A stretch of DNA of 64,000 bases from Leucocoprinus leucothites (lineage: Eukaryota > Basidiomycota > Agaricomycetes > Agaricales > Agaricaceae), in NCBI GenBank assembly GCA_013368445.1, contig JAACJO010000009.1, forward strand, positions 124,001 through 188,000, written 5' to 3'. The position numbers were made by a program, and so were the translations under genes. The notes beneath the pieces are model-generated. The model did not search any database. It was not told where the DNA came from and saw only the letters and a program-made list of their open reading frames with translations. How positions within the stretch are numbered: position 1 is the stretch's first letter; each line of letters starts with the position of its first letter. Below are positions 9,559 through 61,655 of this stretch, in pieces.

Positions 9559-10833
9559 TCAGAATAGACCAAAACGCTTTTTCTGCAAAAATAAACCTGT
9601 CAGCACATCATACAATAAATTCGGGAATTGACCCACTGGCTCGCGAAGACCATAGAACTCGCGGAGATTGTATCCAACTCGAATCCCCATTGCCCTCACC
9701 TCTGCGAAATGACCCCGGAAATCACGCAAACACAATAAATACTCCTCCTCAATCATTCTCTCCAGCTTCTCTTTCTCTTTTGGTTCCAACCCTTCGGTAT
9801 CCAACTGAGCCAGCAGGGGCTCCATTATCCTCTTCTGATCATCATCAGCCTTCCGAAACTTTCCTCGCAGGCTCCTACCATACTCCGTCTTGTTGAGCTC
9901 TGCATACAGCTCACCTAGCTCGTCCTGCAACAGTCGGACTCTGCTATCTTCCTCGTCTCGATTTTTCTTTCTTTCTCTGATGTCATCTGCTATTACACTC
10001 AGCCTTTTTGACCTATCTTCCGTCCCCGCCCCTCCACCTAACAAAGCCCTTGTGACATCAATAATTCCATCAATGACGTGCCAAGCTTCGCCATTGTCCA
10101 TCAAAGGTAGCTGGGCAAATGCCAACCCCTTCTTCACGTCCGATTTGAGCGCCTTTTGGATCACCTGTTCCTCCTCTTGACCATTCTTCAAGCTGACGTC
10201 CTCCCAGCCTACTGAGAGGAAAGTCATGTTGTCCATCTCCACCTTCACATCCCCCTCAAAAATCCCCTTCAGGCAACTCCAGCCACCTGGCATTCCATTT
10301 ATTATGTGCCAATGTTCATAAATGTCATGCAACCAAATGTGGGTGCTGAATTTGACACCAGCCTTGTCCCTTCAGGCCGTTGATTAGTAGGAGCATGATA
10401 GTTCCTGAACTTAATATCACTGACATCCGACCGAGAATGCGTCGAAATCCTTGCTTCTTTTCAAACATAAAGTGTGAATCTGCATCGGGCATGGAAACGA
10501 GGAGGAGTTGAGCCCCTGACGTAGGGTGCCTGACTCTCTGGGGGATAAACTTCCACCAGCTCCAGTCATGTGTGGGACCGGCGAGGAAGTTGAATAGCTG
10601 GAGTTGATGAGTACATGAGAGATTAGTTGCGTATTTCACAGGCGCTCACCTCTGTGCGGGTGGAGGAATTCCTCGACCACAGACTGAAAATTCGGAATCA
10701 TGGGTTATCTTACGAGATGTTCTGATTATTAAAATACATACAAGATCATGATGTCATCCATCCGCACCATGTTTGCAACTTGGCCCGCTGATTTAAGGCA
10801 TCCGCGCCCCCCATTTTCCAACCGGTTGGACAT
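9559..10833 (-). CDS. Pseudo-GTPase-like paralogue, copy 2 (five exons, 351 aa)
   Basis: Exons on the minus strand: 10833-10742, 10683-10650 (34 nt), 10597-10425 (173 nt), 10369-9637 and 9582-9559, summing to 352 codons with the stop. The start MSNRLENGG at 10833 gives an N-terminus close to the shorter paralogues; an upstream in-frame ATG exists. Exon 1 ends DDIMI, the micro-exon gives FLWSRNSSTRTE, then LFNFLAG and AQLLLVSMPDAD. The long exon has MTFLSVGWE, a short coiled coil without the AEEARKK expansion, and FRGHFAEVRAMGIRVG. The tail is KKRFGLF. The last intron (9583-9636, 54 nt) is a multiple of three and free of stops, so an unspliced product would stay in frame. Function unknown; same family reasoning as copy 1. 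Confidence 0.8.
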
Positions 10834-19028: not shown

Positions 19029-20321
19029 TTAGAATAGACCTCGGAAACGCTCCTTCTTCTCCATGTACCAAACCGTCACCACGAGCTTATAATACTGGAA
19101 TCGGCTCGTCGGCTGGTAAAGACCATAAAACTTAGAGAGAGTGGGTCCAACTTCAATCCTCATTGCCCTCACTTCTGCGAAATGACCCTGGAACTCGCGC
19201 AAACACAATACATACTCCTCCTTGATCACTATCTCCAGCTTCTCTTTCTCCTCTGGTTCCAATGCTTCGTTATTCAACTGAGCTAGAAGCGGTTCCATTA
19301 TCCTCTTCTTATCGTCATCGGCCCTCCGGAACTTTGCTCGTACACCCCTACCATACTCCGTCTTGTTGAGCTGTGCATACAGTTCATCTAACTCTTCTTG
19401 CAAACGTCTGACCCTCCCTTCTTCCTCATCCTTCTTTGCCTCCTCAGTCTGTTCTCGTTTTCTTTCCCAGATGTCGTCTGCTATCATGCTCAACCTTTTC
19501 GACCTATCTTCTGCTCCTGCTCTTCCACCTAGCGAGGCTCTTGTGAGATCAATGATTCCATTAATGACGCGCCAAGCTTCGTCTTTGTCCATCAAAGGTA
19601 GCTGGCCAAATGCCAATCCCTTTTCCGCATCAGATGTGAGTGCCTTTTGGATCCTCTGCTTCTGCTCTTGGCCCTCCAGGCTGATCCCCTTCCAGCCTAT
19701 TGAGAGGAAAGTCACATTGTTCATCTCCAACTTCACATCCTCCTCAAAAATCTTCTTCAGGTTATCCCAGTCACATGGTATTCCATTGTCAAGTTTGAGC
19801 CAAGACTCGGAAGTGTCGTGCACCCAAATGTGGGCACCAAACTTGACACCAGCTTTGTCCCTTCAGGCCACTGATTAGTAGGAGTTTGATGAGGACTGAT
19901 CTTAATACCATTTACATCTGACCGAGAATGTGTGGAAATCCCTGCTTGGTTTCAAGTCAAAGTCTGTTGAACCTATACTGGGCACCATGACGAAAAGAAT
20001 TTGAGCGCCTGATGTTGGGTGCCTAGTTTGCTGGGGAACAAACTTCCACCAGCACGCATCATGTGTGGGGTCGGTGAGGAGGTTGAGTAGCTGGAGTTGA
20101 TGAGCCTGCATAAGAGATTAAATACATATTTCACAGGTACTTGCCCTCTTGCGTGTAGTCCACATCCAGGACCACAGACTGAAAAGTCGGGTTATCTTGC
20201 GAGATATTCTGATTATTAGAGATACGTACAAGATCACAATGTCATCCTTCTGTATCATGTTTACAACTTCATCCGCTGATTCAAGACATTCACGCCTACA
20301 CTTTTCCTTCCAGTTAGGCAT
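19029..20321 (-). pseudogene. Pseudo-GTPase-like paralogue, copy 3, frameshifted
   Basis: The layout is the family one: exon 1 20321-20230, micro-exon 20178-20145 (34 nt, FLWSWMWTTRKR), exon 3 20090-19916, and long exon 19860-19029 read through to the tail. Exon 3 is 175 nt instead of the usual 173. Between ILFVMV and the exon end the frame shifts by two, so exon 3 no longer joins exon 4 in frame. The intron after the micro-exon begins GC, not GT. The last intron has lost its donor (gtgagc has become acgagc) and the 51-nt remnant reads through in frame to the tail KKERFRGLF. The long exon is still a clean 264-codon frame, so decay is recent. A sequencing error at the two-base shift is an alternative. 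Confidence 0.75.
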
Positions 20322-42988: not shown

Positions 42989-44256
42989 ATGTGGATGGAA
43001 GATTCGGAACGTCGTCAATCCGTCAACTTGGTCAGAGACATGGTGCAGAAAAACGACAATGTTATCTTGTATGCTGTTACCAGTTTCCTGAGAATGTATT
43101 GTGAAGTGACGCATGGATCCACTCCTTCAGTCTTTGGTCCTGGGACTCCTCCGTTCGCCAGCCAGTGAGGAGTTTTAGGATGCGACCCCAGCCTCATTCT
43201 TATGCACTCTCTATAGTTATTCCAGAGTCTCATTGGTATGAAAAGTGACGTACCTGTCAACTACTGGCTATTTCACCCCGCACGTGTCAAGCAGCCTATA
43301 ACCGGGGCTCATTTTCTTTTCGTCTCTGCACCCAACCCGTCTCGGAATTTTGAAAATGGAAAAGAGTTGCACCGACTCCTTGTCAGGATGTCAGTAAGAT
43401 TGGGTTCAGCTGTCAAGGAACCGCCACTGACTGAACAAAGGCATGAGGTTGGGGTCAAATCTACCACCCACATCTGGATACACGACACCTCTCGACCTCT
43501 TCTCCTCACTGATAATGGGAACCCACGTGGCTGGAGTCATTTTGGATTAGAGAGAGATTCGACGGCTAAATCTGAAAATATGGTCTTTCTCTCGTTATAT
43601 CGAACCAAAGCCAGCTGGGAGGAGGGTCAGAAACAGGAGATGAGGATTCGTAGGGCACTCGGAAAGCATGTAGAAGGCATCCTAGCGTTTGGGAAAACGC
43701 TTGGATCCAATAGAAGTGGGGCTTGGTATGTCATTGAAGGGATTATGGAATTGATTGATACCCGTGATAAAGCGGGAGGGGTAGACGACAGGTCGAAATG
43801 GCTGAACGCAAGAGTGGAGGAGATCTTGCAAAGGGAAAGGAAGAAGGCTGAAGAAGACAACAGAGTCAGACTGATGCAACACGAAATAGGCGAGTTATAT
43901 GAAGAGCTGAGTAAGACGGAGTACGGGAAGGGTGTACGTGCCAACCTTAGGAGGGTTGCTGATGAACAGAAAAAGATGATGGAACCACTCTTGGCTCAGA
44001 TGGACAACGACGACCTGAAACCGGAGGAAAAAGAGCAGTTAGAAAAAACAATTGAGGAGGAGTATCATTTATTCTTGCGGGAGTTTCGGTTCTATTTCGC
44101 AGAGGCAAGGCAAATGAGAATCACCATAGGACCCAACCTGCGCGAGTTTTACGGGCTCCTTGAACCAGTGAGTTTTCCCCTATTTGGGTGCATTCGATGT
44201 ACTGAAGCCCCCCGAAGAGAAAGAGAAAACTTTTCGGTCTATTCAAACGGAATTAG
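42989..44256 (+). CDS. Pseudo-GTPase-like paralogue, copy 4 (five exons, 350 aa)
   Basis: Exons 42989-43068, 43131-43164 (34 nt), 43217-43389 (173 nt), 43441-44167 and 44218-44256 sum to 351 codons with the stop. This is the most diverged intact member. Exon 1 is short (MWMEDSERR...VQKNDNVI). The micro-exon gives FLWSWDSSVRQP, then LFQSLIGMKSD instead of LLNLLAG, and AHFLFVSAPNP at the G3-like strand. The long exon has THIWIHDTSRPLL, MVFLSLYRTK where others have VTFLS..WE, EYGKGVRANLRR, and FRFYFAEARQMRITIG. The last exon gives RKRKLFGLFKRN, so the basic FGLF tail is kept with three extra residues. A longer last exon starting at 44208 is possible in another phase but loses the tail. It is the copy nearest the NACHT gene. 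Confidence 0.8.
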
Positions 44257-45156
44257 TTATGCAGAAGCTTAGGGTTACATTCATCATCCCTGAACTATCC
44301 TATGAGTACCTTATCTGCCCACCGAATCACAAAATAATAAACACGAACGCTGTTGAGATGAATCTCTGTCTGTTTGAAGCAGTGATTAAGGCCAAGACAA
44401 TCACCATGCTACGAAAAGTTGACAAAATTCAACATGTATTATTGTGTTCAAAGTCAGTGAGGAGCCCAAACAGCTCGAAAGTAATATAACACTGGAGCGG
44501 TGATACGCACACATATTATTCATCATGTTGAAAGGTTTTTACATGGACCTTATAGGCAAACAATTAGGAGGGCCGAGAGGGAGAGCGCCATGCATGACAA
44601 TAAATAAATTCTGCCATCAGTGAGCTGACAACACAACCAATTTCTTTGTAACGTCGATACCATCAATCACATTCATAACAATAAGAAGTCGAAGCTTGTT
44701 CTCAATGGGATAACAAGTGGATAGGGGCGAGCTGGGAATGGGGTGCTTCACAGAATTCACTTTCCTTGTAAGTCTACAACAAAATGAAATGCCTGAGTAG
44801 AATAGTCAGTCACAGCGGTCACCCCTCCTTACCTCTTACCACCACCTCCCGCCGTGGCTGCTGGTTGGCACACATCGTAGTTCTCTCTCTCCCACCCACC
44901 ACACCCTTGCCATCCTGCACCATGCCTGTGCAGGCCCCGTGGCTTGAGCTTAGATAGAATTCTGGAAAACGCACCACGGGCAACTACCCACCCGCCCATC
45001 GCACTGTTTCTCACCCCCAAGTCACGCCAAATCAGGCAGGGAAACCCCTCTAGGGCTTTCGCCCACCTCTTACAGAACAAGTTATACCATACTACATACT
45101 CACCAGGCCGCTATATCAACTTGATTATCCATCTCCCCATTTGTAGCCAGACGAGT
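44257..45156. other. Spacer between copies 4 and 5
   Basis: About 900 bases with no supported gene. The minus-strand frame at 45080-44829 (83 codons) is arginine- and glycine-rich with no conserved motif. No clear copy of the left-block repeat segments was noticed. Confidence 0.35.
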
Positions 45157-46559
45157 ATGAGACGCAAAGATCCCCCCACTAACAACAGAACACCTTCGAG
45201 CAGCTCCAGCATGCTAGAAGGAAGGGGGCATGAATGTCTTAAATCAGCAGATGAAGTCGCAAAAATGATGCAGAAGGATGACATTGTGATATTGTGTGTG
45301 CTTTCGCTAATCGGAATATCTTACAAGAAAACTCATAGTCACGATTTTGCAGACTTTGGTCTTGGATAGTTCTGGACCGCCAGAAGGTGAGTGCCTATAA
45401 AATGGATATGTAGTCAGTTTTATATGTACTTGTCGACTCCAGCTATTCAATCTCCTCGCTGGCACTCAGCGTGATCTGGACACATGGAAGTTCGTTGCCA
45501 AGGAAGTCAAGCATCCGGTGTCAGGGGCTCGAATTCTCCTCGTCTCTACGACAGATGCATATTCATACTTTATGCTTGAAAGGAAGCAAGGTCTTGAACG
45601 TATTCTTAGTCGGATGTAAGTACCAAAACCGACATTCATCAAACCCCTGCTGATCGGTGACCTGAAGGAACAAGGTTGGTGTCAAACTTGGCGCCCACAC
45701 TTGGGTGCACCACATTACTGATACTTGGCCCATAAAACATGGAATGCCAGTTGGCTGGGATGAGCTGAAGGAGAGCTTGAACAGGGATGTGGCAATGAAG
45801 ATGTCCAACGTGACATTCCTCTCAATATGCTGGGAGGAGGCCGGGTTGGAGGAAGGCCAGGAGCGGGAACTGAATATCCGGACGATGCTCAGAGAGGATG
45901 CCGACAGGGGATTGGCATTTGGCCAGTTACCTGTGATGGACAGAAATGAAGCCTGGTGCATCATTGATGGAATAATTGAGCTCACAACAACTTTGCTGGA
46001 TCAAAGGGCAGGGAAAGAAGAAAGATCTGGACGGTTAAGCAAGTTAGCGGATGATATCAGAGAAAGAAAAATAAAAAAGGATGAGGAAGCAAGGGAAAAG
46101 GCTGAGGAGGCGAGAAAGAAGGCTGAGGAGGCGAGAAAGAAGGCTGAGGAGGTAGTGAAGAAGGCCGAGGAAGATAGTAGAGTCAGGCTTTTACAGCATG
46201 AATTACGCATGTTGTATGCAGAACTGGATAAGACGGAGCATGGTAAAGGTGTAAAAGCAAAGTTTCAGAGGGCCAGCGATGATCAGAAGAGGATAATGGA
46301 GCGCCTTATAGGTCAATTGTGTGGTGAATGGTTGGAACCCGAGGAGAAAGAGAGGTTGGAAAAGGTGATCGAAGAGGAATATATTTTGTGTTTGCGCGAT
46401 TTCCGGGGTCATTTTGCAGAGGTGAGAGCTATGGGGATTGAAGTTGGGTTCAATCTCCGTGAGTTTTACGGCCTTCTTGAACCTGTGAGCTGTTTGTTGT
46501 TGATTTGTTTCCATGCACTGAATGCCTTGTAGGAGAAGAAGTGGCTTGGTATATTCTGA
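45157..46559 (+). CDS. Pseudo-GTPase-like paralogue, copy 5 (five exons, 395 aa)
   Basis: Exons 45157-45293, 45353-45386 (34 nt), 45443-45615 (173 nt), 45668-46484 and 46533-46559 sum to 396 codons with the stop. It starts MRRKDPPTNNR; HECLKSADEVAKM and DDIVI end exon 1 (residues about 27-45). The micro-exon gives LLWSWIVLDRQK, then LFNLLAGTQRD and GARILLVSTTDAY. The long exon starts NKVGVKLGAHTWVHHIT and has VTFLSICWEEAGLEEGQERE, AFGQLPVMDRNEAW and IIDGIIEL. A coiled coil built of three AEEARKK-like heptads (46080-46175) follows, then HGKGVKAKFQRASDDQKRIM and FRGHFAEVRAMGIEVG. The tail is EKKWLGIF. Order and spacing resemble the lid and C-terminal part of fungal AIG1/G-domain proteins; nucleotide-binding motifs are absent. 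It is the clearest reference copy. Confidence 0.85.
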
Positions 46560-49500
46560 TGTAGATATACCCTTGATCATTGGATGTATTATTCTCGTCG
46601 GCTACTTGTGTATCACACTAATAATTGATTTTCCCGTATCTGTCCCTGTACATATAGGTACCTTGAACACATCGGGTCACAAGTGCAGAACTCTGTTTAC
46701 TCGCGAACTGAACGTTAATGAGAGGACTGAATAACAAACCCCTAAAATATACCAACAACTCTGGTCTGCGGCACAATTGGGCTGCAGCGAATAGGCTACC
46801 AGCCACTATTCTCGAACATGCTGAGCCCTTTATCGATTAAGTCAGCGTGGAATCGTTATAGTGCCAACTTGTGCACACATACCTTATGTACAAATCGCTC
46901 TGCACACAAGTCAATTCTAGGCAATCATGTACAGGTGGGGTTCGAGGCTCCCGTAATCTTTGCTATGTCATCGGAGATCAGAAGGAATAGCGTGAAAGAC
47001 CAGCAAAACCTTTGGGCGGAGAAATATCCTGGTCAGCTTCTAGATTAAGCGAACAAAGGGGAGCGGTCCGGGTAGTTGTAACTCATGAAGACATAAAGGC
47101 GAACGTAAGCGAAAGGGTGGCTGAAAAAGCGAGAGGCGAGACAAGGGGACCGGAATTTTCTGTGCCTTTGAAGCCAGGAGGGAGGGACGGGCGAGTGTCT
47201 GCGACCTGGTGCGTGGCGGGGCGCAAATTGGTTGGTGGGGTGAGGGTACATGCATGAGTTGAAGAGTTCCGCGTCATGAGCCTGTAAAACATTCTGGGGG
47301 AATAAAGATATCAATTGTAGGGAAATTAAGACAGCGACATGACGTACTTCTGGCTTCCATGTCCATAGGCTAGCGGTCTTGCCAAAGAAGCGCTGATGAG
47401 AAAGTCTAGTAACCTATAGGTGGCATTGGGAAAAAGATAAGCCATAAAACATAGGAACATAAAATAAACACCCACGAGAATGCTGGTAGGACAAGGAATC
47501 GAGGGGATAAAACCAACCGTGATCAAGATTGGAGAAAAAGAAGTATTGTGATCTGTTGGGGAGAAAGAAGAGAGTGAACCCCAAGAGCATCAAAGAAGAG
47601 ACGTGGTCATTCAATTGGTTAAAGCAGAGTAGAAAATGCAAAGAATGAGAGGTACAGATATGTTGACGAATGGCCGCTGAGCATCAGAAATATGTATGCA
47701 CACTTTACTATGGTGTATAATGGTAGTTATTTGGCTTCTGGTAGAGGTTCAAGAAGACCAGGGAGTGTGCTGGAGTGTTTTACTAATCAAAACGATCATC
47801 AAACATCAAGAAGCGATCCTATCGACTACTTAATGCTTCGATTTAGGATATAGGTTGACGACTGAATTCTTTATGGAGATGCGGACCTATGATAGCTGTA
47901 AGCTGCGAATGGCCTTCTTGTCCATTTGTAAGCGTAGGCGAATCATAGGGCTATAATGATGAATGTGGGTATCTGGTCAGACGATGTGCGTTTGTGCTGC
48001 ATTATTTATGCGTGCTCACAGTTTAGAATGATTGTACCGAGATTCAACAGCTGTCATGGCGATAGTTGAAGCAGTGAATCCTTTAGATGATAAGTGAAGG
48101 AGCAACGAAAATGCTATATTACAACGCACCTCTAATGTGGAGCTAGAGTTACTTGGAAAAGCTGAGTTCCTTACAGTTAGGACATATGCCACTAACAACA
48201 TACGGGACCTCCTCTCTCTCAGATACCCCTGGCTTGGATTTGGATTCAGAGTTTTGTAGACGTATACTCATCATGCAAGAATTAGATGATCTTGTGACAT
48301 AAGGATAAAGACAATCCAAAGTGGAGACTTTATAATGTGAAGCCGAAATCCAGTCCTCAAAGCAGGCTCCTGAACGGCAGCAGGTGCGAGTGGACTGGTG
48401 GATATTTCGTCCGGTTTTCAAGTTGAAGTGAGATGTATGTGCCTATAGAGTATAATTTCCATCCGCGGCATCTTTTTCAAGTGCATAGGCTGTGCTTCTT
48501 GCTCCCTTGCTACCCCCAGCTAGATATGCGCCTCGATATCATCAGGTGATGGCCGGAAACAGAGAGCGGAAGGGAACCAGGCGCCAAGGTGAAAATGGAA
48601 ACGGGGAGAACGAGAATCGGTTTGCATATGCCCAGTTATGAGTTAAATGCACCATTTATTGTGTTGTTACTTATTTCATTTTTTCGATGGGCTGGTTGAG
48701 TAGCGGCAAAAGCATGGAGAGATGAAGAATGGGCTGCCATGCGTGACATAGGCACCTGTTCGAAGCTGACTGAGGAGCATCAGCGGAGTTCAAAATTTCT
48801 GGCATGGAGTCCACATTTGGCACTGGATGAAGCACTGACACTCAGCTCCCTGTTTGGGGTTGCTTACACGCCTTTCGCCCCCCATTGATTCTTGAATGGT
48901 CCCTTCTGCTGTGTTGTGCTATCCTGGCCATCTACTCCACCAGCGTTCTCACTGATGTATCAGCTCTTGGTCTCTTCCCTGGTGAGCTAGATTTTTGTTA
49001 TTGTGGAATCACGCTCACTCCTTGCATTAGAACGCACATTCTCTGAACAGCTTGAATGCTTTGTTGACACACTGAATATTCAATAGTTGATTTCTGCATT
49101 TTCCGCTAGTGTACCTAAGTGAAAATCGTCGACTGGGAGGTACGGGACCTATGGCCAACGGTCCAGTATTGGATGGAATCGGTATGGGAATGAGCGATCG
49201 TATATGTTGTCATGTTACTCACCGCATCCTCACCGCATCTTGAACTAGTTCCTAGACATCAATAGCTCCCGACCAGCATTGTCGCCCACGCAGTCCCAAT
49301 GAACCTCTTTATCATTTTCCTGTTCTCTGGCCCTTACCTCTTATTCTCTTCACCTATCGGCAGCTCGGCACCATCAGACAATGCTTCTCACCCTACCGGA
49401 CAACTCCAGATGGGTCTCGGGCAGGTCGGCGCTCATTGTACCCATAGCAACACACATCCTTGCTCTCCGCTCAGCACCAGTGACAGAGGCATGCACCTCA

Positions 49501-50203
49501 ACTGCCTGAGTACATAGTGAATCCTCACCCTCAACGCAGCCCTGGTCAAATTGAGGGATTTTGTGACATAGCACAGTTGATAAGATCGTCGGGTAACTTG
49601 GAAGGATAGTCCGACACCACGAGTTGTAGAGATATATGAGGTTGTTAGACCTAGATCGACCTCCGTCACGGCAGTATACAACACTACTATGGCCAAGAAA
49701 GAATTTAGGGATCTTTGCTCATATACTCATGTCTCGGAGCTCGCTACACCACAACAATAAACATTCAACTGCCTTCATATTTACCAAAATACCCACCTGC
49801 TTCTTCCAGGTCCTTGCCTCTTGCTTGCTCATGTTTCCTGCTCTTATCAACTTGCTCCCTCTCAACTTGCTCCTGTCAACTGCCACTTTCACACTCAACT
49901 CCTCACCCTGTATCGATATATACTCATGTTTTTTTCCTGAACGCAACTTGGTTCTTATTTCTACAGGCTTAATTATCATAAGTGCTCCTGGTAGCACGTG
50001 TAGCGCCCATTTTTCCTTTGCTTGATGCCAACTTTCATGGGCTCTTTTACATATCAGCAATCCCCAATCAGTGTGTTACAATTGCAATTTGACAAGCCTC
50101 TCGATAACATGCGTGTGGGAGAAACCTGGAACCACTATATGATCATAGGATTTGCTGAGGTGCTTCACCAGAGAGTGTGCTTCTTTTCCTTCCCCCGCCA
50201 ACA
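46560..50203. repeat. Long spacer with the left copy of a 0.9-kb segmental duplication
   Basis: No supported gene in 3.6 kb. About 48585-49450 is a clear duplicate of about 51530-52400, in the same orientation. Matching landmarks include tgattcttgaatgg (48886 and 51846), cattctctgaacagcttgaatgctttg near 49030 versus the near-identical run near 52000, and gacaactccag near 49400 versus gacaactccac near 52350. A plus-strand frame at 49299-49517 looks like a signal peptide (MNLFIIFLFSGPYLLF) but is not open in the duplicate. 46.8-48.5 kb shows nothing recognisable. Confidence 0.6.
49909..49928 (+). promoter_or_regulatory. Conserved TATA-like block upstream of copy 6
   Basis: Reads tgtatcgatatatactcatg, followed by cctgaacgcaacttgg. 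The core GTATCGATATATACTC is the same as in the blocks upstream of copies 1 and 2, in the same sense relative to the gene, at about 275 bases before the chosen ATG. That distance is plausible for a core promoter with a leader. Function is inferred. Confidence 0.45.
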
Positions 50204-51374
50204 ATGCACCAAGATGCTAGAAGCCCTCACAAGATGTGGAGCGAATACCTTGCCTCAGCAGACGAAGTTGCGAGCATGATGCAGAAAGATGACATTGTGA
50301 TCTTGTGTGTATTCTTGATAATGACAATATCTCGCAAAATAACCCATGACCCCGACTTTTCAGTCTTTGGTCTAATCAGGTCACTGAGCATATGAGGGTG
50401 AGTGCCTCTGAATTATGTATCCAACCTCTGTGTAATCATGAACTCCAGTTATTCGGTCTCTTTTCCGACATCGCACACCACTTCGACTGGTGGAAGTTTG
50501 TTCCCCAGCAAGTTAGGCACCCAGTGTCAGGCACTCAAATCCTTCTCATCTCCGTCCCCAATACAGACTTGTACTTTATAATGGGAGAGCAGCAAGGGCT
50601 CCAACACATTCTCAGTCAGATGTACGTAATATCAAGGCCGGCATCTGTCAGGTTTCTATTAACCAGTGGCATGAAGAGACAAAGCTGGTGTCAAATTTGG
50701 CACCCACATTTGGGTGCATGATATTGCTAGCCCTTGGTTAACGCATGGAACACAGCCTGGATGGCCGAAGGTGGAGATGGACAGCATGACTTTCCTCTTG
50801 GTTGGCTGGGAGTACGTCAACTTAGGGGATGGTCAGGAGAGGGGGCAGCTGATTCAAAATGCACTTAGAGAGGACACTGAGAGGGGATTGACATTGAGAC
50901 GACTGCCTTTGATGAGAAAAGATGAAGCTTGGTGCATCATTGATGAGATTATTGAAAGATTAAGGAAGAAACCTGAAGATAGAAGAGTCAAACTTTTGGA
51001 GCATGAGTTACGTGAGTTGTATGTGGAGTTGGACAAGACAGAGTATGGTAGAGGTGTACAAGCCAAACTTCGGAAGGCATCTGACAACCAGAAGAGGATA
51101 ATGGAACCCCTTCTGGCTCAAATAGATAGTAAATATCTGGAATCAAAGGAGAAAGAAAAGCTGGACATGATGATAAAGGAGGAGTATGATTTGTGCTTGC
51201 GCGAGTTTCGGGGTCACTTCGCAGAGATAAGAGCAATGGGAATTGAAGCTGGATTCAATCTCCGTGAGTTCTATGGTCTTCCCGAGCCAGCGGTGAGTCG
51301 ATTCCTAAATCATTTTATCATGTGCCAAAACTTAACTGTACATGCAGAAAAAAAAGCATTTTGGTCTATTTTGA
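50204..51374 (+). CDS. Pseudo-GTPase-like paralogue, copy 6 (five exons, 316 aa, shortest)
   Basis: Exons 50204-50304, 50364-50397 (34 nt), 50449-50621 (173 nt), 50677-51292 and 51348-51374 sum to 317 codons with the stop. The start MHQDARSPHK is the nearest ATG; an earlier in-frame non-ATG extension is possible. Micro-exon FLWSNQVTEHMR, then LFGLFSDIAHH and TQILLISVPNTDLYF. The long exon starts DKAGVKFGTHIWVHDI and has MTFLLVGWEYVNLGDGQERG, but lacks about 60 residues. The DRSK..IADDI region and the charged AEEARKK coiled coil are reduced to LRKKPEDRRVK. EYGRGVQAKLRKASDNQKRI and FRGHFAEIRAMGIEAG follow, and the tail is KKKHFGLF. The loss looks like a clean in-frame deletion of the linker. 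Confidence 0.82.
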
Positions 51375-54300
51375 GGACTCATCATGGACTGAGTTATATC
51401 ATCTCGACTACTGTACCTCTTGTATTATAGTGACTTTCAAATGCCATTTCTCTCTTCTTGCATGTATGAACAATTCCGGACAAATCGGGCTTTAGAAACA
51501 TGAATAAAACGGCATAGACCATTATGATGCAGCACCAAGGAAACGGAGAAACAGGGAGATCAAAAATTGGCCCTGCGTGTGCCCAGTTATAAGTTGAATA
51601 AGCTGGTTACCGGATCGTTTTTCTTTCCTTTCCTCAATGGACTGATTCAGTAGCCGTGAAGGGTTGAGAGAGAGAGGAAACGGGATGTCTATGCATGCTA
51701 TTGCAATGCAGGTACCAGGAGAATCAGCGGAGTTCAAATTGCTGGCACCAAGGCGCTGGACTATCTCAGCCACTGCATCCTCATCGCTGAGACTCAGCTC
51801 CCCGTTCGATATCTTGCACCGCATACACACGCCTTTCACCCCCGTTGATTCTTGAATGGCCTCTTCTGCTCTGTTGTGCTATCCCGGCTGTCCACTCCAC
51901 CAGCATTCTCATTAATATATCCACCCTTGATCTCTGGCCTGGTGAGCTGGATATCCGTTATTGTGGAATTGCACTCGCTTCTTGGGCTAAAGCGCACATT
52001 TTCTGAACAACTCGAATGCTTTGTCGACACACTGGATACTCGATGGTTGATTTCTGCGTTTTCACCTAGTATATCCAGGTGGAAATCGTCAACTGAGAAG
52101 CACGGTACCTATGCTCAACAGTATACCAATATGGGATGGAACAGGTATGAGAATGACTGATTGCCTTTGTGGACGGATTATTCACCTCATCCTTGCTCCA
52201 ACTTTAACTAGTTTCTAGACATAAATAGCTCACAATCAACACTGTCGCTCGCGCAATCTTGATATCCCACCTCACTATCTTTTGTTCTCTAGCCCATAAA
52301 TACATACCTCTCCTCATCTTTGCCTATCAACAGCCTGACGCTGCCTGGTGGACAACTCCACCTACCACTTAGACCGAGATACTTCTAGTCTTCGTTCCCC
52401 ATGAAAGTGGTGACTTCGCTGTTGGATAGATTGGAAGGAAATCACTTAATCATCAGGTGTTTCAGCGCAGCTCCGATGGCATTGTTTGGAATGGTCAGCA
52501 CAACACCAGTGGTCCACAGTATGCCATTTTCAATTAGCCAGTGCGGGTCCATATCTTACATTTGTATCACAACTAGGACCGCACTTTCATCACAATCCCC
52601 CATTTCCACCTGCTCATAAATTTCGTCCTCGCGTCTTCAGTTCACCAAACGCCTTTTGACCACTACCCCTACCTCGTCCCTAATTGAGGTACAACTTACC
52701 ACATTCAATCCCTTGCACCATTTGTCTCACATCTATAGACTACGTCACCCACCTCGTCTTTGTGATACAAGCGATGGCGCGAGTGCGAAGAGGAGTTGGG
52801 GAGTTGTTTTGTGAGAGTTGGTGAGGGTGACAAGGGGAATGGGCTGTTGTCGAGCTGTAGCACTACTGCCAAATCAAACCTGTGCTCCGCAAAATGTGTT
52901 TGTCAACTTAACCTGATTTTCCGACCTTCTGGCTAATGGTTAGATCGCTTTTGTAGAGCTACAATGCTTGGATTACCCAAGACATTGCTCTTACTTACAT
53001 GCAGAGTTGTATTCTCCAAGTCACACCCGTTTATTCCCCAGATGAGCGCTTTTATACTCCTAGAAGCCAACTCGGAACCCCCGCCCTGCCCTCAGTGCAC
53101 CCCAGTGAACCTCCTTGTAATTCAATGCAGGAGGCATCAAAGGAATGTACTCGCGAGGACGAAAGTGTCGGAACATCCACTACAATCAACAGGAGCGGCG
53201 ACATCGCCGACGAGAATAATGATTCCAGTGCTAAGTAGCTCCCTGGTACTCGGAAGAAAAACAGGACGAAGAATCAGGATTAGGAATGCGGTGGTGGTAC
53301 TTCCCTCATACCTATATTCACCTCCCATGGCCCCCTGCCCCCTTTCATCTACACCACGCTTCGAATGTCTACGTAGGCGATATATTTATTCAATTTCCGT
53401 CAAAATACACCACCTATCACCATCTAGAGAGTCGGACATGGATTTTAAACGCACGTTTACAAGGTCATGGACGGCTTGAAATTCGGCGGTTTGCTCAAGC
53501 AGTGAGAGAAGGGTGTGTGGTGTGTCCATTGATTACCTGTTTCTGTCCTTTGCTGGTCTTCTCCTCAGGAAGATTGGTGGTGAGTATGGCAAACTTGTAG
53601 TTTTAGTGAGCAGAGCTACCTCCACATCCTCCCTCACGGTGCTTATCATCTCCAAAGAAAATTCCAGAAGACAAAATCTAGTCGCGTCTCCCGTGTAATC
53701 CTATTTTAATCACGCCAAATTTGAAGGTCAACTTGCTGAAACTCATATCTGTGTCAACGATGTCCGATGATCCTCACCACAGCCTCGTGTAAGTTGTCCT
53801 CCATACAGCAGCAGCAGCATAAGCTCTATGTCATTATCGACATCCCATGACTAAGAATAAAGTTAGTTCCTAATGCGGTGCCGGGTGTCGGAGCACGGTT
53901 TGATAGACACACAACAGCATAGACCGACAGCGTCACCAAGATGGGACAGGATGGCTCACGGCTCGGGCAGCTTTATTTCATGTCTCAGCCCACCTGAATC
54001 CTGCAACCCAGTTGGACGACAGGCCTTGGTTGAGTGGTCAGCGCAACTCAATAGGGAGAATTATGCGAAGGACGAGGCCCAAATCCCTGACGAGACGGCG
54101 GTGGCGCCGAATAAGGTGGATTAAGTTGGTGAACCATGAAGATAGATATAAAGATTCATAATGCAGGCTCATATATCACTATCAGGTTGTCTTCGCGATA
54201 TTGTTTGTTCCCTAGAACGCGAATATCTTCAGGTGGCTGTGCTCTTCTATTTCTAGCTTTCTTAGTGTATTGGATACCATCAAGTTGTTCACATATCAAC

Positions 54301-54384
54301 ACACCTGGCAACCTGCACGAGAATTGCCAAAACTGACGAGTATATAAACAAGGTAAGACTCCTCAACGACCTTCATCCCAAACA
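51375..54384. repeat. Spacer with the right duplicate and an inverted accessory segment
   Basis: About 51530-52400 duplicates 48585-49450. About 52990-53480 is an inverted, diverged copy of the segment at 5990-6600 and 14390-15270: its plus strand corresponds to the minus strand of those. The shared string is gatatattta...aaaatacaccacc, reverse complement of the run near 6045-6090. Inside it a short plus-strand frame (53050-53238, with ECTREDESVGTSTTI) matches CARENGSVGPITAI on the minus strand near 6310-6280. No intact gene is seen; 53.5-54.3 kb is unexplained. Confidence 0.55.
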
Positions 54385-55768
54385 TGTCTGAGCAAATCAA
54401 GCATGAATGTATCGAATCAGCCTACCAAACTGCTAAAATAATGTGTCGATATGACATTATAATCTTGTGCGTATGTAATGAACTCGCCCCTACGAGCTGC
54501 CATCTGACTTTGGTTCTTTAGTCTCTGGCCATCTCAACACTCTTACTGCCGCGAGAATGCAAGTGTTTATACAACAAGTGACTAATATCGTACTTAGTAT
54601 GATTCTTACTTAGTTCCTCAACCTTCTTGTTAGAACAAGACGCGACGCTGTCCAGCATTGGTGGAGGTTTTATCCTCAGCTCGCAAAGCATCCTGTAACT
54701 GGTGGTCGAATCATTCTAGTTTCCATGCCTACTCCACACGCGTTCTTGCATAATGATATCAAGGAGGGCCTTCAACACCTTCACGCGCGGATGTAAGTGA
54801 TATATGTTTCACCGAACTAGTACTAAAACTTCGAAGGGACGAGGCTGGTGTTGAAATCAGTGCCCATGTCCAGGTAGACGACATTTCAAAATCACAGCTC
54901 CCTGACAGCTGTGGGATGCTAAACAGCTGGAATTGCTTGAAAGATATCTTGAGGGAAAACATGAAGGTTGAAATGAACCGTCTGATTTTTCTTACAGTGA
55001 ATTGGAACACGGATGAGGCAAGGAACAAGGAGCAGGAGATGAGGATCAAGGAGGCACTCAGAGAAGATGTGGAAATGGGACTAGCATTTGGGCGACTACG
55101 TGCAATGGGGAACGCTGAAGCGTGGTGCGTCATTGAGGGGATTGTAGATTTGGTAACAGCTACTGCCAACGGAAGGGTAAAGATCAGAGATAGATCTAAT
55201 TGGCTAGGTATGCGGGTGAATGATGCTCGGGACAGTGCAGCGGGAAGAGATTTTAGAGAAACATGGGAGAGACAGATGATACCAATCATGCAGGCGCAAG
55301 AGAGAGCGAGAAAGAAGGCCGAAGAGGAAAGGAAGAAGGCTGAGGAAGCAAGGAGGAAAGCAGAAGCAGAGGCCAGGGTCACGTTAATGCAAGATGAAAT
55401 AGATGAGCTACATGTGGAGCTAGCCAAGACAGAGTACGGAAGGGGTATATCCACAAAACTTCGAAAGGCCTCGGACGACCAGCGACGAATAATGGAGCCA
55501 TTATTAGCTCAGATAAACAGCAAGGACTTGACATTGGAGGATAAACAAAATCTGGAGAAGGTGATTGAGGACGAGTATCATTTGTGTTTGCGCGAGTTCC
55601 GGGGTCACTTCGCGGAGGTGAGAGCAATGAGAATTGAGATTGGGCTCCATCTCCGCGAGTTCTATGGACTTCTTGAGCCGGTAAGTTGTCCTGAGTTCAT
55701 ATCGTCTTACAAGCAAGCTGAAGAGCGTCTAGAAGAAAAAGAAGACACGTCATCTCATTATACTTTAA
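54385..55768 (+). CDS. Pseudo-GTPase-like paralogue, copy 7 (five exons, 392 aa)
   Basis: Exons 54385-54467, 54522-54558 (37 nt), 54614-54792 (179 nt), 54837-55680 and 55733-55768 sum to 393 codons with the stop. It starts MSEQIKHECIESAYQTAKIM. The micro-exon encodes FLWPSQHSYCREN and its intron uses a GC donor (gcaagt); the usual GT position reads aa, and the exon is three bases longer as a result. Then FLNLLVRTRRD and GRIILVSMPTPH. The long exon has ISAHVQVDDIS, IFLTVNWN, AFGRLRAMGNAEAW, an ERARKKAEEERKKAEEARRK coiled coil, EYGRGISTKLRKASDDQRRI and FRGHFAEVRAMRIEIG. The tail, KKKKTRHLIIL, is basic but has lost FGLF. Without the last splice the frame continues to 55815. Confidence 0.78.
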
Positions 55769-56525
55769 ACAGCTTCAATAATTCGGAAGAAAATTATAAA
55801 ATTATCAGAGTTTGAATCAACGAGGCGCTCCATTTGCCGCACTGGCGGGTCGGGCCAGTCAGTGCTGCATACCGTCCTCCCTCCTCAAAGCTCAAGGTGC
55901 CAGTCCACCTTGCCATATAGCTCAGTGTGGCCTTTCACCCATCAATCCGATCCTTCATTGCCAGCAAGTCGTGTTTCCCTCGAATGTTCCTTCCATCAGC
56001 TCCTACATGCAAGAATCGGCTGACGCGTTTGCTGTGTGGACCCCGCACCATTTAATTCACTCCAGTCAATGTAGCTCGCGTCAATTTAATGTCAGAAAGG
56101 ATACCCTTAACCAAATACGGTGTATAACGAGCATTTCCGCACGTCGCCGATGTCATTGTTGGACGTTGGACGTTGGCCCCTGAACTTGAATGTCCAGCAT
56201 CCTGGTTTTGAGGCTATGCAGTATTGTCTGAACACTACTTCCCGGGCTGTTGCTCAGTTTCCTGTTCCTGTATTCTCTGAATATACTTGATTGACTGTTA
56301 CTGTCATTTGATTTGAACCAAGATAAGTCATCGCTACAACCAGACGTGTTTGCGGAATGATAGGGTTCCTATCCCAAGTCGGTCTCCTGAGCCTTTGATT
56401 CTAGGCGCCTTAATGTACGTGACCTGAGGCTGTGACCGCTTACCCTCATATAGCTCGCTACGAATGTATCTTGCAAGGGTTCCTCTTGTCTTTCCTCCGG
56501 TTGCACACAGTGTTAGCATTCCCCT
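55769..56525. other. Spacer between copies 7 and 8
   Basis: About 760 bases, no supported gene. A plus-strand frame at 55812-56183 (123 codons, cysteine- and serine-rich) has no recognisable motif and overlaps frames of similar length. Confidence 0.35.
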
Positions 56526-57934
56526 ATGATCACGCCCGATTGGGAGCAGTGGAGGCATGAATGTGCTGCATCAGCTAATCAAGTCATCAAATTGATGCGG
56601 AAAGACGACATCGTAATCTTGTATGTGTCTACGAAAACCAGTATATGCTACATCTCATTAGGCAAGCCATGTTTTTGAACGTTGATCAGCCTTTGGTCTT
56701 ACTGGGCTTCTGATCGTGCCGCGGTAAGTGTTTATAAAATAACTCTCCGATCTCATATCAAATCATGCATAAACCCCAGCTATTCAACCTCCTCGTTGAC
56801 ACAACAGCGGCCGCACATGACCTATCCGACGAGTCCAACTGCTGGAAATTTTATCCTAGGCGTGTCAAGCATCCCATTTCTGAAGCTCAAATCCTTCTCA
56901 TTGTCATGCCCGATGCGGACGGAAAAATTATCAGCGAAAAGAAGCGAAGGTTCCAACGTATACTCCGTCAGATGTAAGTGACATCAAGCTCGACCTCTAC
57001 CAATCACTTACTAGTCAAATGGTTCTTGAAGGGAGAAAACTGACATCAAAATCAGCGCTCACATCTGGGTGCATGATATTTCTCAGTCGTGGCTCCGGGG
57101 CGATGGAAAGCCACATGGTTGGGATTCGCTGAGGGAAATCTCGGGGCTGGAGATGGAAAAAGTGACTTTTCTAGCGATCAAGTGGGAGAAGGCTAGTTCG
57201 ACGCACGGGCAGATTCAGGAGAAGAAGATCCAGGAGTCACTCAGAGAGGACATGAAGAATGGGTTGGTATTCAAGCGACTACCCAAGATGGACAAAGATA
57301 AAGCTTGGTCCGTCATCGATGGAATCAGAGTTATGAGGGCTCCTGTGGACGGAAAGCCGGGGAAATTGAACGTGATGGTGAAAGATATCATAGAAAGAGC
57401 GAAGAAGAAAGCTGAGGAGATCAGGAGGAAGGCTGAGGAAGCCAGAAAGAAAGCTGAGGAAGAGGCCAGAAAGAAGGAAGAAGAGGAAGCTCGGAAGAAG
57501 GCCGAAGAAGAGGCTAGAAAAAAGGCCGAGGAAGACAGTAGGGTCAGGTTCATGCAACGCGAGATAGTTGAGCTGTATGCCAAGCTGGACAAGACAGAAT
57601 ATGGTAGAGGTGTGCGAGCCAAACTTCGGAAGGCCTCTGATGATCAACAAAGAATAATGGAGCCATTATTGGCTCAGATGGATAGCGAGGGCTTGAAACC
57701 AAAGGAAAAAGAGAGATTGGAGAACGTGATCAAGGAAGAATATGACTTGTGTTTACGCGAGTTCCGAGGTTACTTTGCCGAGGTGAGAGCGATGAGGATT
57801 GAGATCGGGCCTCATCTTCGTGAATTTTATGGACTTCTCGAACCAGTGAGTCAATTCAAGTTGTTTGGTTGTTTCTCGAGCTGAAAGAGCTGTAGAAAGT
57901 GAAAAAGAGGCGCCTCCGCCTATTCCGGTCCTAA
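56526..57934 (+). CDS. Pseudo-GTPase-like paralogue, copy 8 (five exons, 391 aa)
   Basis: Exons 56526-56620, 56690-56723 (34 nt), 56780-56973 (194 nt), 57032-57845 and 57896-57934 sum to 392 codons with the stop. It starts MITPDWEQWRHECAASANQV. Micro-exon FLWSYWASDRAA, then LFNLLVDTTAAAHD (seven residues longer in this exon than usual) and EAQILLIVMPDADG. The long exon starts EKTDIKISAHIWVHDISQSW and has VTFLAIKWEKASSTHGQIQE, FKRLPKMDKDKAW and VIDGI. The longest coiled coil of the family follows, about seven repeats of AEEARKK (57400-57540), then EYGRGVRAKLRKASDDQQRI and FRGYFAEVRAMRIEIG. The tail KVKKRRLRLFRS is strongly basic, resembling a nuclear or membrane-surface targeting tail. Function unknown. 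Confidence 0.83.
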
Positions 57935-60660: not shown

Positions 60661-61655
60661 ATGAGCGGTCTCGCCAAGAGGAGAGAGGGAGGTTTGCTGA
60701 GATTATTTGTATTGTCGGACCGAATTCCCCTGGGAAAAGATCCGATAGTCACGACTCTGATGAGGATGTATAAAGTAGCGGGTATAGAAAACCGTTTTGT
60801 TGCGGGGCAGAACTTTCAGTATATCGACGGGTAAACATGCGGCATGGAGTGATGAGCAAGGTATGATTAAATGACTTTCAGTTTTCAGTTCAAGGCATTG
60901 GATATCGTGCATGGGCCCAAAGGAGCATTGCTCATTTTTCGCACAGCGGCTGTGGGCTTACTTTTTCCAGAGCCTATGTGCAATGAGCCAAGTTCTAACT
61001 TGAAACATGTTCATCTCTGTTAGAGAAGACTCGAGCACTTCTCTCGAAGAGCTGAGGGTTCAAGATCAGGAGAGCATAATCCAAGATGCTCTTGCAGCAG
61101 ATCTGGAACAAGGGCCAGTTTTTGTACGACTCCAAAAGTATGTCATGGAGAGGGTCATGAATTCGGCGCCCACTACCCTTGCCGGTGAAGTGGATCAGAC
61201 AGATAGGAAGAGTTGGTTCACCTGTAAGAAAAAGGTTGAAGGTATAGTTGGATGGTATGACGAAGACGCCCGGGTCAAATCAATGCAAAAGGAGTTAGAG
61301 GAACTTTTTCTAAGCTGGATAAGACTGGGCATGGAAGAGGTTTACAAAGCTCACTTCAGGCGTGTCGGATAGGCAGAGGACCACGATTGAGCCAATTTAA
61401 GCTGAAATAGACGCTGAAGACGTTGAAGAAGATGTTAAGATGCAATTGGATGAGGAGTTGGAGGAAGGGTAGGGATATTTTAGGCGAGAGTTTAGGGGGG
61501 TATTTTGAGGAAGCCAGAGAGATGGGCATTCCCATTGGGAGATAGCTCCGGGATTTTTACAGTATCCGCTCTTCTGTGAGTACTATTGTTCACTGTCCAT
61601 CAGGTCTTAGAGAAAATCAGAAAAGAGGCTCTTTGGCACTTTCTGAAGTCCCAGA
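60661..61655 (+). pseudogene. Fossil paralogue, copy 9, with frameshifts and stops
   Basis: Pieces of the family long exon survive. 61020-61372 reads SVREDSSTSLEELRVQDQES, QDALAADLEQGPVFVRLQK, then ARVKSMQKELEELF and EEVYKAHFRRVG before a stop. About 61495-61575, in another frame, reads YFEEAREMGIPIG, a stop, then LRDFYSI, followed by gtgagt like the normal last donor. About 1.3 kb of sequence in the family order is thus eroded. Upstream at about 60705-60750 a plus-strand frame reads EIICIVGPNSPGKRS before a stop, at about the position where intact copies have DDIVIFLWS. If homologous, it would be a near Walker A motif. Assignment of the 3' half is fairly safe; that of the 5' part is uncertain. 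Confidence 0.6.

What the first reader, a model, noticed from the sequence alone, without database searches (positions are those of the whole stretch)
42989..57934. A lineage-specific family of five-exon genes that looks like a degenerate (pseudo-) GTPase family
Seen: eight recognisable genes (three on the left, five here), seven of them intact, with one exon plan. Order of elements: DDIVI(F/L)LWS, LLNLLAG, ILLVSMPD, THIWVHDIS, TFLS..WE...GQE.E, LP.MD..EAW.IIDGI, LQ.EL.ELY.EL.KTEYGRG. Known: fungal AIG1-like G-domain proteins have a DIVIAVMGxTGxGKS strand and P-loop, LINLLAG-type helix, VVLIDTPG strand, YLHRISD, VTTxWD, GxxRE, AW.II and an LQxE...TxAG helix in that order. Inference: the family is a derived G-fold in which G1, G3 and G4 residues are replaced in every copy (GKS lost, DTPG to SMPD or SVPN, WD to WE). 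Conserved yet catalytically dead members in tandem would suggest a scaffolding, decoy or sensor role.
Basis: partly seen in the sequence, partly recalled or inferred. Interest (0 to 1): 0.9.

Follow-up and report, generated by a model that had tools for sequence, protein, structure and literature searches.

The report
Mushroom pseudo-GTPases with hypervariable dead P-loop
A parasol-type mushroom carries a tandem family of genes descended from a GTP-binding protein in which the GTP-gripping loop has been erased and turned into a fast-changing loop under diversifying selection, as expected of a recognition or decoy surface, though what it recognises is unknown.

Summary
The window (Leucocoprinus leucothites, contig C9) carries eight genes of one five-exon family, seven intact, plus a relict; the genome search adds eight more copies, one of them broken. 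The family aligns end to end with ordinary G-domain proteins of the same genome (profile-profile 99.6%; G part alone 98.8%, shuffled controls at most 0.6%). Three introns agree in place and phase, including the 34-nt mini-exon that in ordinary genes encodes the P-loop. A model predicted from family sequences alone is a G-domain. G1 and G3 are lost in 17 of 17 members; 'G4 lost' is not supported.

New here: in six close copies the dead G-domain is under strong diversifying selection (M1a/M2a 2dlnL 40.6; 0 of 60 null simulations reach it), the coiled coil much less, and the G parts of ordinary paralogs give at most 2.0. Six of 21 high-posterior sites are former P-loop residues, and that segment outpaces the introns in 14 of 15 pairs. 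Best reading: a pseudo-GTPase repertoire whose former nucleotide face is a variable recognition or decoy surface. Ligand unknown; nothing tested biochemically.

The parts
45157..46559 (+). family gene w45 (P0001, D9756_006922, 395 aa); exons 45157-45293, 45353-45386, 45443-45615, 45668-46484, 46533-46559
   Evidence: spliced model has the same sequence as the deposited protein
45353..45386 (+). exon 2 of w45, 34 nt, phase 2 in / 0 out: the former P-loop mini-exon (..LWSWIVLDRQK)
   Evidence: same length and phases as the P-loop exon of ordinary paralogs
42989..44256 (+). family gene w43; exon 2 at 43131-43164
50204..51374 (+). family gene w50; exon 2 at 50364-50397
54384..55768 (+). family gene w54; exon 2 starts at 54522, 43 nt by the GT-AG model, 37 nt if intron 2 is GC-AG (read by eye)
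56526..57934 (+). family gene w57; exon 2 at 56690-56723; its spliced product equals database protein P0004
1779..3125 (-). family gene w1 (P0002, D9756_006907; the deposited start lies further upstream); exon 2 at 2914-2947
9559..10833 (-). family gene w9; exon 2 at 10650-10683
19029..20321 (-). family gene w19, probably broken: exon 3 frame shift; intron 2 read by eye as GC-AG; 3' end not resolved
61004..61643 (+). degenerate ninth copy (relict of exons 4-5 with an in-frame stop; no exons 1-3 in the model)

Best explanation
The family is a lineage-specific set of pseudo-GTPases. Shown computationally: it is homologous to the ordinary G-domain proteins of the same fungus, keeps their gene plan and predicted fold, has lost the P-loop, the G2 threonine and DxxG, and its dead G-domain is under diversifying selection, densest in the former P-loop. 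Inferred: the proteins bind no nucleotide in the usual way; the former nucleotide face became a variable binding surface that recognises, or baits, fast-changing partners (parasite, viral, bacterial or allelic non-self factors). The conserved coiled coil and the basic C-terminal tail (KKxxFGLF type) would carry the constant function: self-association, or pairing with ordinary G-domain partners or a membrane. In short, a repertoire of sensors or decoys with a constant handle and a variable head.
Against: No ligand, partner, localisation or phenotype is known. The selection test compares paralogs of one genome, not alleles. The 108-kb and 120-kb copies have identical exon 2, which suggests gene conversion, and that can inflate site tests. 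The site models are my own code with branch lengths fixed from M0 and naive posteriors. The coiled coil also has a weak signal (M7/M8 7.2, M8a/M8 6.7). One ordinary set gives M7/M8 11.2 with three sites above 0.9, and another has a relaxed C-terminal part (omega 0.86, two sites above 0.9). In seven other copies the P-loop columns are only modestly more variable than the rest (p 0.03). Neither nucleotide loss nor the decoy role is tested biochemically.
Confidence: 0.55

Rival explanations
1. Constitutive regulatory partners: the dead proteins pair with ordinary G-domain paralogs (as pseudoGTPase septins do in filaments) and the variable residues tune partner choice rather than recognise foreign factors.
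For: The genome holds many ordinary paralogs (24 distinct loci modelled); coiled coil and tail are conserved; septin pseudoGTPases show co-variation with their G-interface partners (PMC10731463, abstract read). The variable residues lie partly where G-interface contacts would be (inference).
Against: Partner co-evolution would have to be fast, yet two of the three ordinary control sets have G-part omega 0.19 and 0.15; the third has 0.50. Omega about 3.7 in about a quarter of sites is high for a stable partner interface.
Confidence: 0.22
2. Relaxed constraint: the G part is decaying after loss of function and the copies are on the way to pseudogenes.
For: Two copies are broken (19 kb, 100 kb) and one is a relict. 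M0 omega of the G part is 0.99, the neutral value. The 318-kb model has no stop within ten codons of its modelled end.
Against: M8a against M8 rejects a maximum of omega 1 (41.2). The exon-2 segment differs more than the introns in 14 of 15 pairs. 14 of 16 genomic models have no internal stop or frame defect after their start. FLWS, HDIS and W motifs are kept in most copies, and the C-terminal part is under purifying selection (omega 0.25).
Confidence: 0.1
3. Still a nucleotide or phosphate binder in a new way: the Arg that stands at the P-loop Lys position in most copies holds a phosphate of another ligand.
For: Arg stands in that alignment column in 12 of 17 members.
Against: The P-loop glycines, the Ser/Thr, the G2 Thr and the G3 Asp are gone except for single chance matches; the residues around the Arg are among the selected sites.
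Confidence: 0.1
4. Convergent fold: an unrelated domain that resembles a G-domain.
For: None of 14 family queries matches a Pfam GTPase family even at E 10, though HMMER's filters drop most weak matches.
Against: Shared intron positions and phases, full-length profile match, order of elements.
Confidence: 0.01

Closest known systems
Ordinary G-domain (MMR_HSR1/GBP/AIG1-like) proteins of Agaricomycetes, incl. own paralogs at C4:1.92 Mb, C4:1.97 Mb, C19:0.26 Mb
   Same: full-length alignment, intron plan with a 34-nt P-loop exon, helical C-terminal half
   Different: they keep GxTGxGKS and DTPGF with few exceptions and show no diversifying selection at the P-loop
Vertebrate GIMAP / plant IAN GTPases (Pfam AIG1)
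   Same: G-domain with helical C-terminal extension (recalled); clustered, tandem-like loci in other organisms are described in PMC7053062 (passages read); structural matches to GIMAP1, 2 and 7
   Different: no sequence match of the family to the AIG1 profile; no P-loop
Mouse Irgb2-b1 tandem IRG protein
   Same: divergent selection on the G-domain surface; suggested to distract the parasite's ROP5/ROP18 complex (PMC3810784, passages read)
   Different: another GTPase family; selection there lies on H4 and alphaD, here densest in the former P-loop; no parasite factor is known here
Septin pseudoGTPases
   Same: repeated, independent degeneration of GTPases, yeast included, with fast evolution in some (PMC10731463, abstract read)
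   Different: members of a filament-forming family; the abstract describes changes at an assembly interface, not a tandem family with a hypervariable P-loop exon
p190RhoGAP pseudoGTPase domains
   Same: GTPase-like domains called pseudoGTPase (PMC5593906, search listing only)
   Different: domains inside a large regulator, not a tandem gene family

Membership tests
G-domain fold (descent from) | homology to G-domain proteins over the domain | tested here: met
   hhalign G part alone 98.8%, E 4.3e-17; 20 shuffled controls at most 0.6%, reversed 0.8%
G-domain fold (descent from) | six-strand alpha/beta G-fold | tested here: met
Functional GTPase | G1 GxxxxGK[ST] | tested here: not met
   0 of 17 members; 17 of 17 own and 18 of 18 other ordinary proteins have it; 23 of 24 over all distinct own loci modelled
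Functional GTPase | G3 DxxG | tested here: not met
   0 of 17; D in 0 of 17, G in 1 of 17
Functional GTPase | G4 [NT]KxD-type base recognition | tested here: inconclusive
   the site is mostly TMWx already in ordinary relatives, with the fourth residue variable
Functional GTPase | GTP binding or hydrolysis | not testable with these tools
   needs purified protein
AIG1/GIMAP (Pfam PF04548) | profile score above the curated cut-off | tested here: not met
   0 of 8 single-exon pieces and 0 of 6 full-length members listed even at E 10; ordinary paralog 21.3 bits against a cut-off of 27
PseudoGTPase (functional class) | G-fold with conserved catalytic motifs missing | tested here: met
PseudoGTPase (functional class) | measured lack of nucleotide binding or hydrolysis | not testable with these tools
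   bench assay needed

The most novel reading that the evidence does not exclude
The P-loop mini-exon has been turned into a hypervariable cassette: a 34-nt exon with a constant frame (FLWS ... R) and a freely diversifying core of about five codons, moved between copies by gene conversion. It gives a mushroom a germline repertoire of recognition heads on a dead G-domain, an innate or non-self-recognition family of a kind I found no description of in the searches.
Probability: 0.3. Interest if true: 0.85.

Novelty: new variant of a known kind. Interest (0 to 1): 0.72.

Why it matters
PseudoGTPases are, as far as I recall, mostly described as single members or single domains of working families. 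Here a whole tandem family has lost the nucleotide site, and that site is where selection diversifies most densely. If it holds, it shows how a GTPase can become a recognition molecule (lose the switch, keep the fold, vary the loop), with a clean record because the loop has its own mini-exon whose length and splice phases have hardly changed (34 nt in 14 of 16 models). It also gives a concrete entry point into non-self recognition in mushrooms: seven intact genes in one window, one with transcript-like evidence, with defined variable residues to exchange.

Tried and rejected
Pfam on exon-4 pieces and on full-length proteins gave only sub-threshold matches, largely in the coiled coil, and a PDB sequence search with one member gave only weak matches, mostly coiled-coil designs, so ordinary profile annotation misses the family. 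Protein searches with one member and with a family alignment found, at E below 1e-30, relatives only in L. leucothites, L. birnbaumii, one unnamed read-assembly cluster (equal to the 56-58 kb gene) and one unnamed JGI contig; both scored only the roughly 8000 candidates sharing most words, so wider absence is not proven. The first splice script on the ordinary genes used the family's profile and gave poor models; introns were then placed by pattern. One search stopped on a script error after the first of three genes. In one search loci on the minus strand were scanned on the wrong strand; they were redone. The first site-model run hit the time limit; it was rerun with branch lengths fixed at M0 values.

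Considered and rejected: unrelated fold; simple decay; G4 loss as a family trait. Checks that went only weakly my way: in seven other copies the P-loop columns are not the most variable (ranks 14 to 94 of 175; p 0.03). Without the P-loop residues the enrichment of selected sites on the strand-end face is borderline (6 of 15, p 0.047), and that face was defined after seeing the sites. Of nine pairs put to Fisher's test (of 15), seven are below 0.05; one is 0.088, and the 108/120-kb pair is 1. Structure rows beyond the 50 shown were not seen. Ten paper searches listed no paper that looked to be on this family.

Rows dropped before counts: codon site tests used 6 of 16 copies (closest intact ones); pairwise rates used 14 of 16 (19-kb and 100-kb copies left out), and of 91 pairs only those with dS below 1.5 (46, 30 and 36 by region). 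Ordinary own loci: of 30 fetched, 6 were repeats of the same gene and 7 were more diverged or lower-scoring and left out by my judgement, leaving 17; one of the seven (L038) has a damaged P-loop and G3, so the '17 of 17' is 23 of 24 when all are counted. Site tests on ordinary genes used 13 of the 17 in three overlapping sets. The tree used 15 genomic copies (100-kb copy left out) plus one L. birnbaumii protein.
Full report
What is there. The window is C9:124001-188000 of a 47-Mb genome whose proteins are deposited as Leucocoprinus leucothites, Agaricaceae. It carries eight copies of one gene family, three on the minus strand at 1.8-20.3 kb and five on the plus strand at 43.0-57.9 kb, plus a relict at 61.0-61.6 kb. 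Four more lie at C9:97-121 kb on the minus strand, so the locus is two arrays reading away from each other; others sit at C9:318 kb and 595 kb, C8 and C16. I placed exons with a spliced profile aligner of my own; it reproduced the deposited 395-aa protein P0001, which was one of six in its profile. The first three introns have phases 2-0-2 in 15 of 16 copies and the last has phase 0 in 15 of 16; the exception is the 19-kb copy. The C16 model has an extra 5' intron, and the broken 100-kb copy has extra ones inside exon 4. Exon 2 is 34 nt in 14 of 16 models. Read by eye with GC-AG introns it is 34 nt in the 19-kb copy and 37 nt in the 54-kb copy.

Ancestry. Weak matches of the genome search led to three genes on C4 and C19 with an intact P-loop. 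Their exon 2 is also 34 nt, enters in phase 2 after DDI(V/I)I and leaves in phase 0, and it encodes the P-loop (AFMGPTGxGKS plus one residue). Intron 3 splits a codon in phase 2, followed by four residues and then a VKL-type triplet, at the same place in 16 of 16 family copies and in these ordinary genes. Seventeen ordinary own paralogs modelled later all show phases 2-0-2 with exon 2 spanning 12 codon steps, and seven of the 17 also have a phase-0 intron near the C-terminus, as the family does. Profile-profile alignment of seven family proteins with 18 ordinary ones gives 99.6%, E 4.9e-25, over 282 columns. Repeated in a script: full 99.7%, G part alone 98.8%, C-terminal part 97.1%, twenty column-shuffled G parts at most 0.6%, reversed 0.8%. 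In a tree of 54 proteins the 16 family rows (15 genomic, one L. birnbaumii) are one side of a branch with support 100/100 and a very long stem of 1.82.

The dead site. In an alignment of 17 family members (16 genomic, one L. birnbaumii), 17 ordinary own paralogs and 18 other ordinary proteins, G1 is present in 0, 17 and 18; D..G of G3 in 0 of 17, 16 of 17 and 18 of 18; the G2 threonine column is lost in the family. Over all 24 distinct ordinary own loci modelled, G1 is present in 23; the exception, L038, was left out of the 17. The G4 place (TMWx) varies at its fourth residue in ordinary proteins too, so it says nothing. Family-specific constants are FLWS, WVHDIS and, in the column of the P-loop lysine, arginine in 12 of 17. 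Eleven of the 16 models end directly before the stop in a K/R-rich stretch followed by four residues ending in F, such as FGLF or LGIF.

Selection. I compared the six closest intact copies (45, 1 and 9 kb of the window; 97, 108 and 120 kb of C9). Over 181 codons of the G part one-ratio omega is 0.99; over 103 codons of the coiled-coil part it is 0.25. Site models (own code, branch lengths fixed from the one-ratio fit up to a common scale) on the G part: M1a/M2a 2dlnL 40.6, M7/M8 46.3, M8a/M8 41.2, with a class of omega about 3.7 holding about 24% of sites; the coiled coil gives 5.7, 7.2 and 6.7. Sixty simulations under M1a gave mean 0.75 and maximum 6.2. Dropping each of the six copies in turn left 20.7 to 36.0; about exons 1-3 alone gave 11.6, the exon-4 part 39.0, and the G part without its first 18 codons (residues 39-56) 28.5. 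Twenty-one sites exceed 0.9 (naive posterior): 50-54 and 56, then 71, 96, 132-134, 143, 147, 169, 177, 181, 184, 190, 212, 219 and 220; none of 42 strand residues is among them. Residues 50-56 stand where PTGxGKS stands in the ordinary genes; six of these seven are selected (hypergeometric 7.8e-6, chosen after seeing the sites), the exception being the position of the lysine.

Independent of codon models, nucleotides 10-24 of exon 2 differ by 56% on average between the six copies, while the four introns together differ by 23.5%; exon 2 exceeds the introns in 14 of 15 pairs, and the 3' flank in the same 14. In two pairs with separate paths on the tree Fisher gives 0.0008 and 0.00016; seven of nine pairs tested are below 0.05. 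The exceptional pair, 108 and 120 kb, has identical exon 2 with introns 13% apart, which looks like gene conversion.

Controls. Three sets of ordinary own paralogs (6, 4 and 5 genes, 13 distinct), G part: omega 0.19, 0.50 and 0.15; M1a/M2a 2.0, 1.6 and 0.0; no site in the first 24 codons above 0.59. The first set has M7/M8 11.2 with three sites above 0.9. The set with omega 0.50 also has omega 0.86 and two sites above 0.9 in its C-terminal part, and one member has DTPPF for DTPGF, so some decay occurs there as well.

Expression. P0004, from a read-assembly source, is the uninterrupted product of the 56.5-57.9 kb gene with all four introns removed. That implies an RNA origin; I could not see the library.

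Reading. Ancestry and loss of the motifs are computed results with controls; the fold is a prediction. Diversifying selection is well supported among paralogs of one genome. The function is inference: a constant coiled-coil handle and a variable head made from the former nucleotide face is the pattern of a sensor or decoy. The nearest precedent I read is Irgb2-b1 of mouse, where H4 and alphaD of a G-domain show divergent selection and the protein may distract a parasite kinase complex (PMC3810784, passages). Septins show degeneration into pseudoGTPases with fast evolution in some (PMC10731463, abstract). No paper holding both 'pseudoGTPase' and 'positive selection', or both 'AIG1' and 'Agaricomycetes', is in the library searched.

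Noticed in passing
window 40589-41950 (+): Open frame with NPHP3_N / NACHT domains (E 9e-26 and 7e-12), an NLR-type gene lying between the two arrays.
   Followed up: partly
L017 (C9 about 108 kb) and L018 (C9 about 120 kb), exon 2: Two copies with identical exon 2 while their introns differ by 13%: likely gene conversion of the mini-exon.
   Followed up: partly
window 20100-20180 and 54522-54565: Two copies seem to use GC-AG for intron 2 (read by eye).
   Followed up: no
L016 3900-5900 (C9 about 100 kb): A broken copy with in-frame stops and a long lysine/glutamate-rich repeat in exon 4.
   Followed up: no
L038 (C3:2186699-2187301): An ordinary-type paralog outside the family with its own damaged P-loop (GPTDSGQS) and G3 (VIPG) but the same intron phases 2-0-2: an independent case of motif loss.
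   Followed up: no
L024, L030, L033 with L022 (C19 and C9:909 kb): A young group of ordinary G-domain paralogs with raised omega (0.50 in the G part, 0.86 in the C-terminal part) and one DTPPF in place of DTPGF: perhaps another group starting to decay.
   Followed up: partly
P0145 (L. birnbaumii, 625 aa): Deposited model that looks like two family units in one protein, the second lacking the exon-2 residues; may be a merged gene model that skipped the mini-exon.
   Followed up: no
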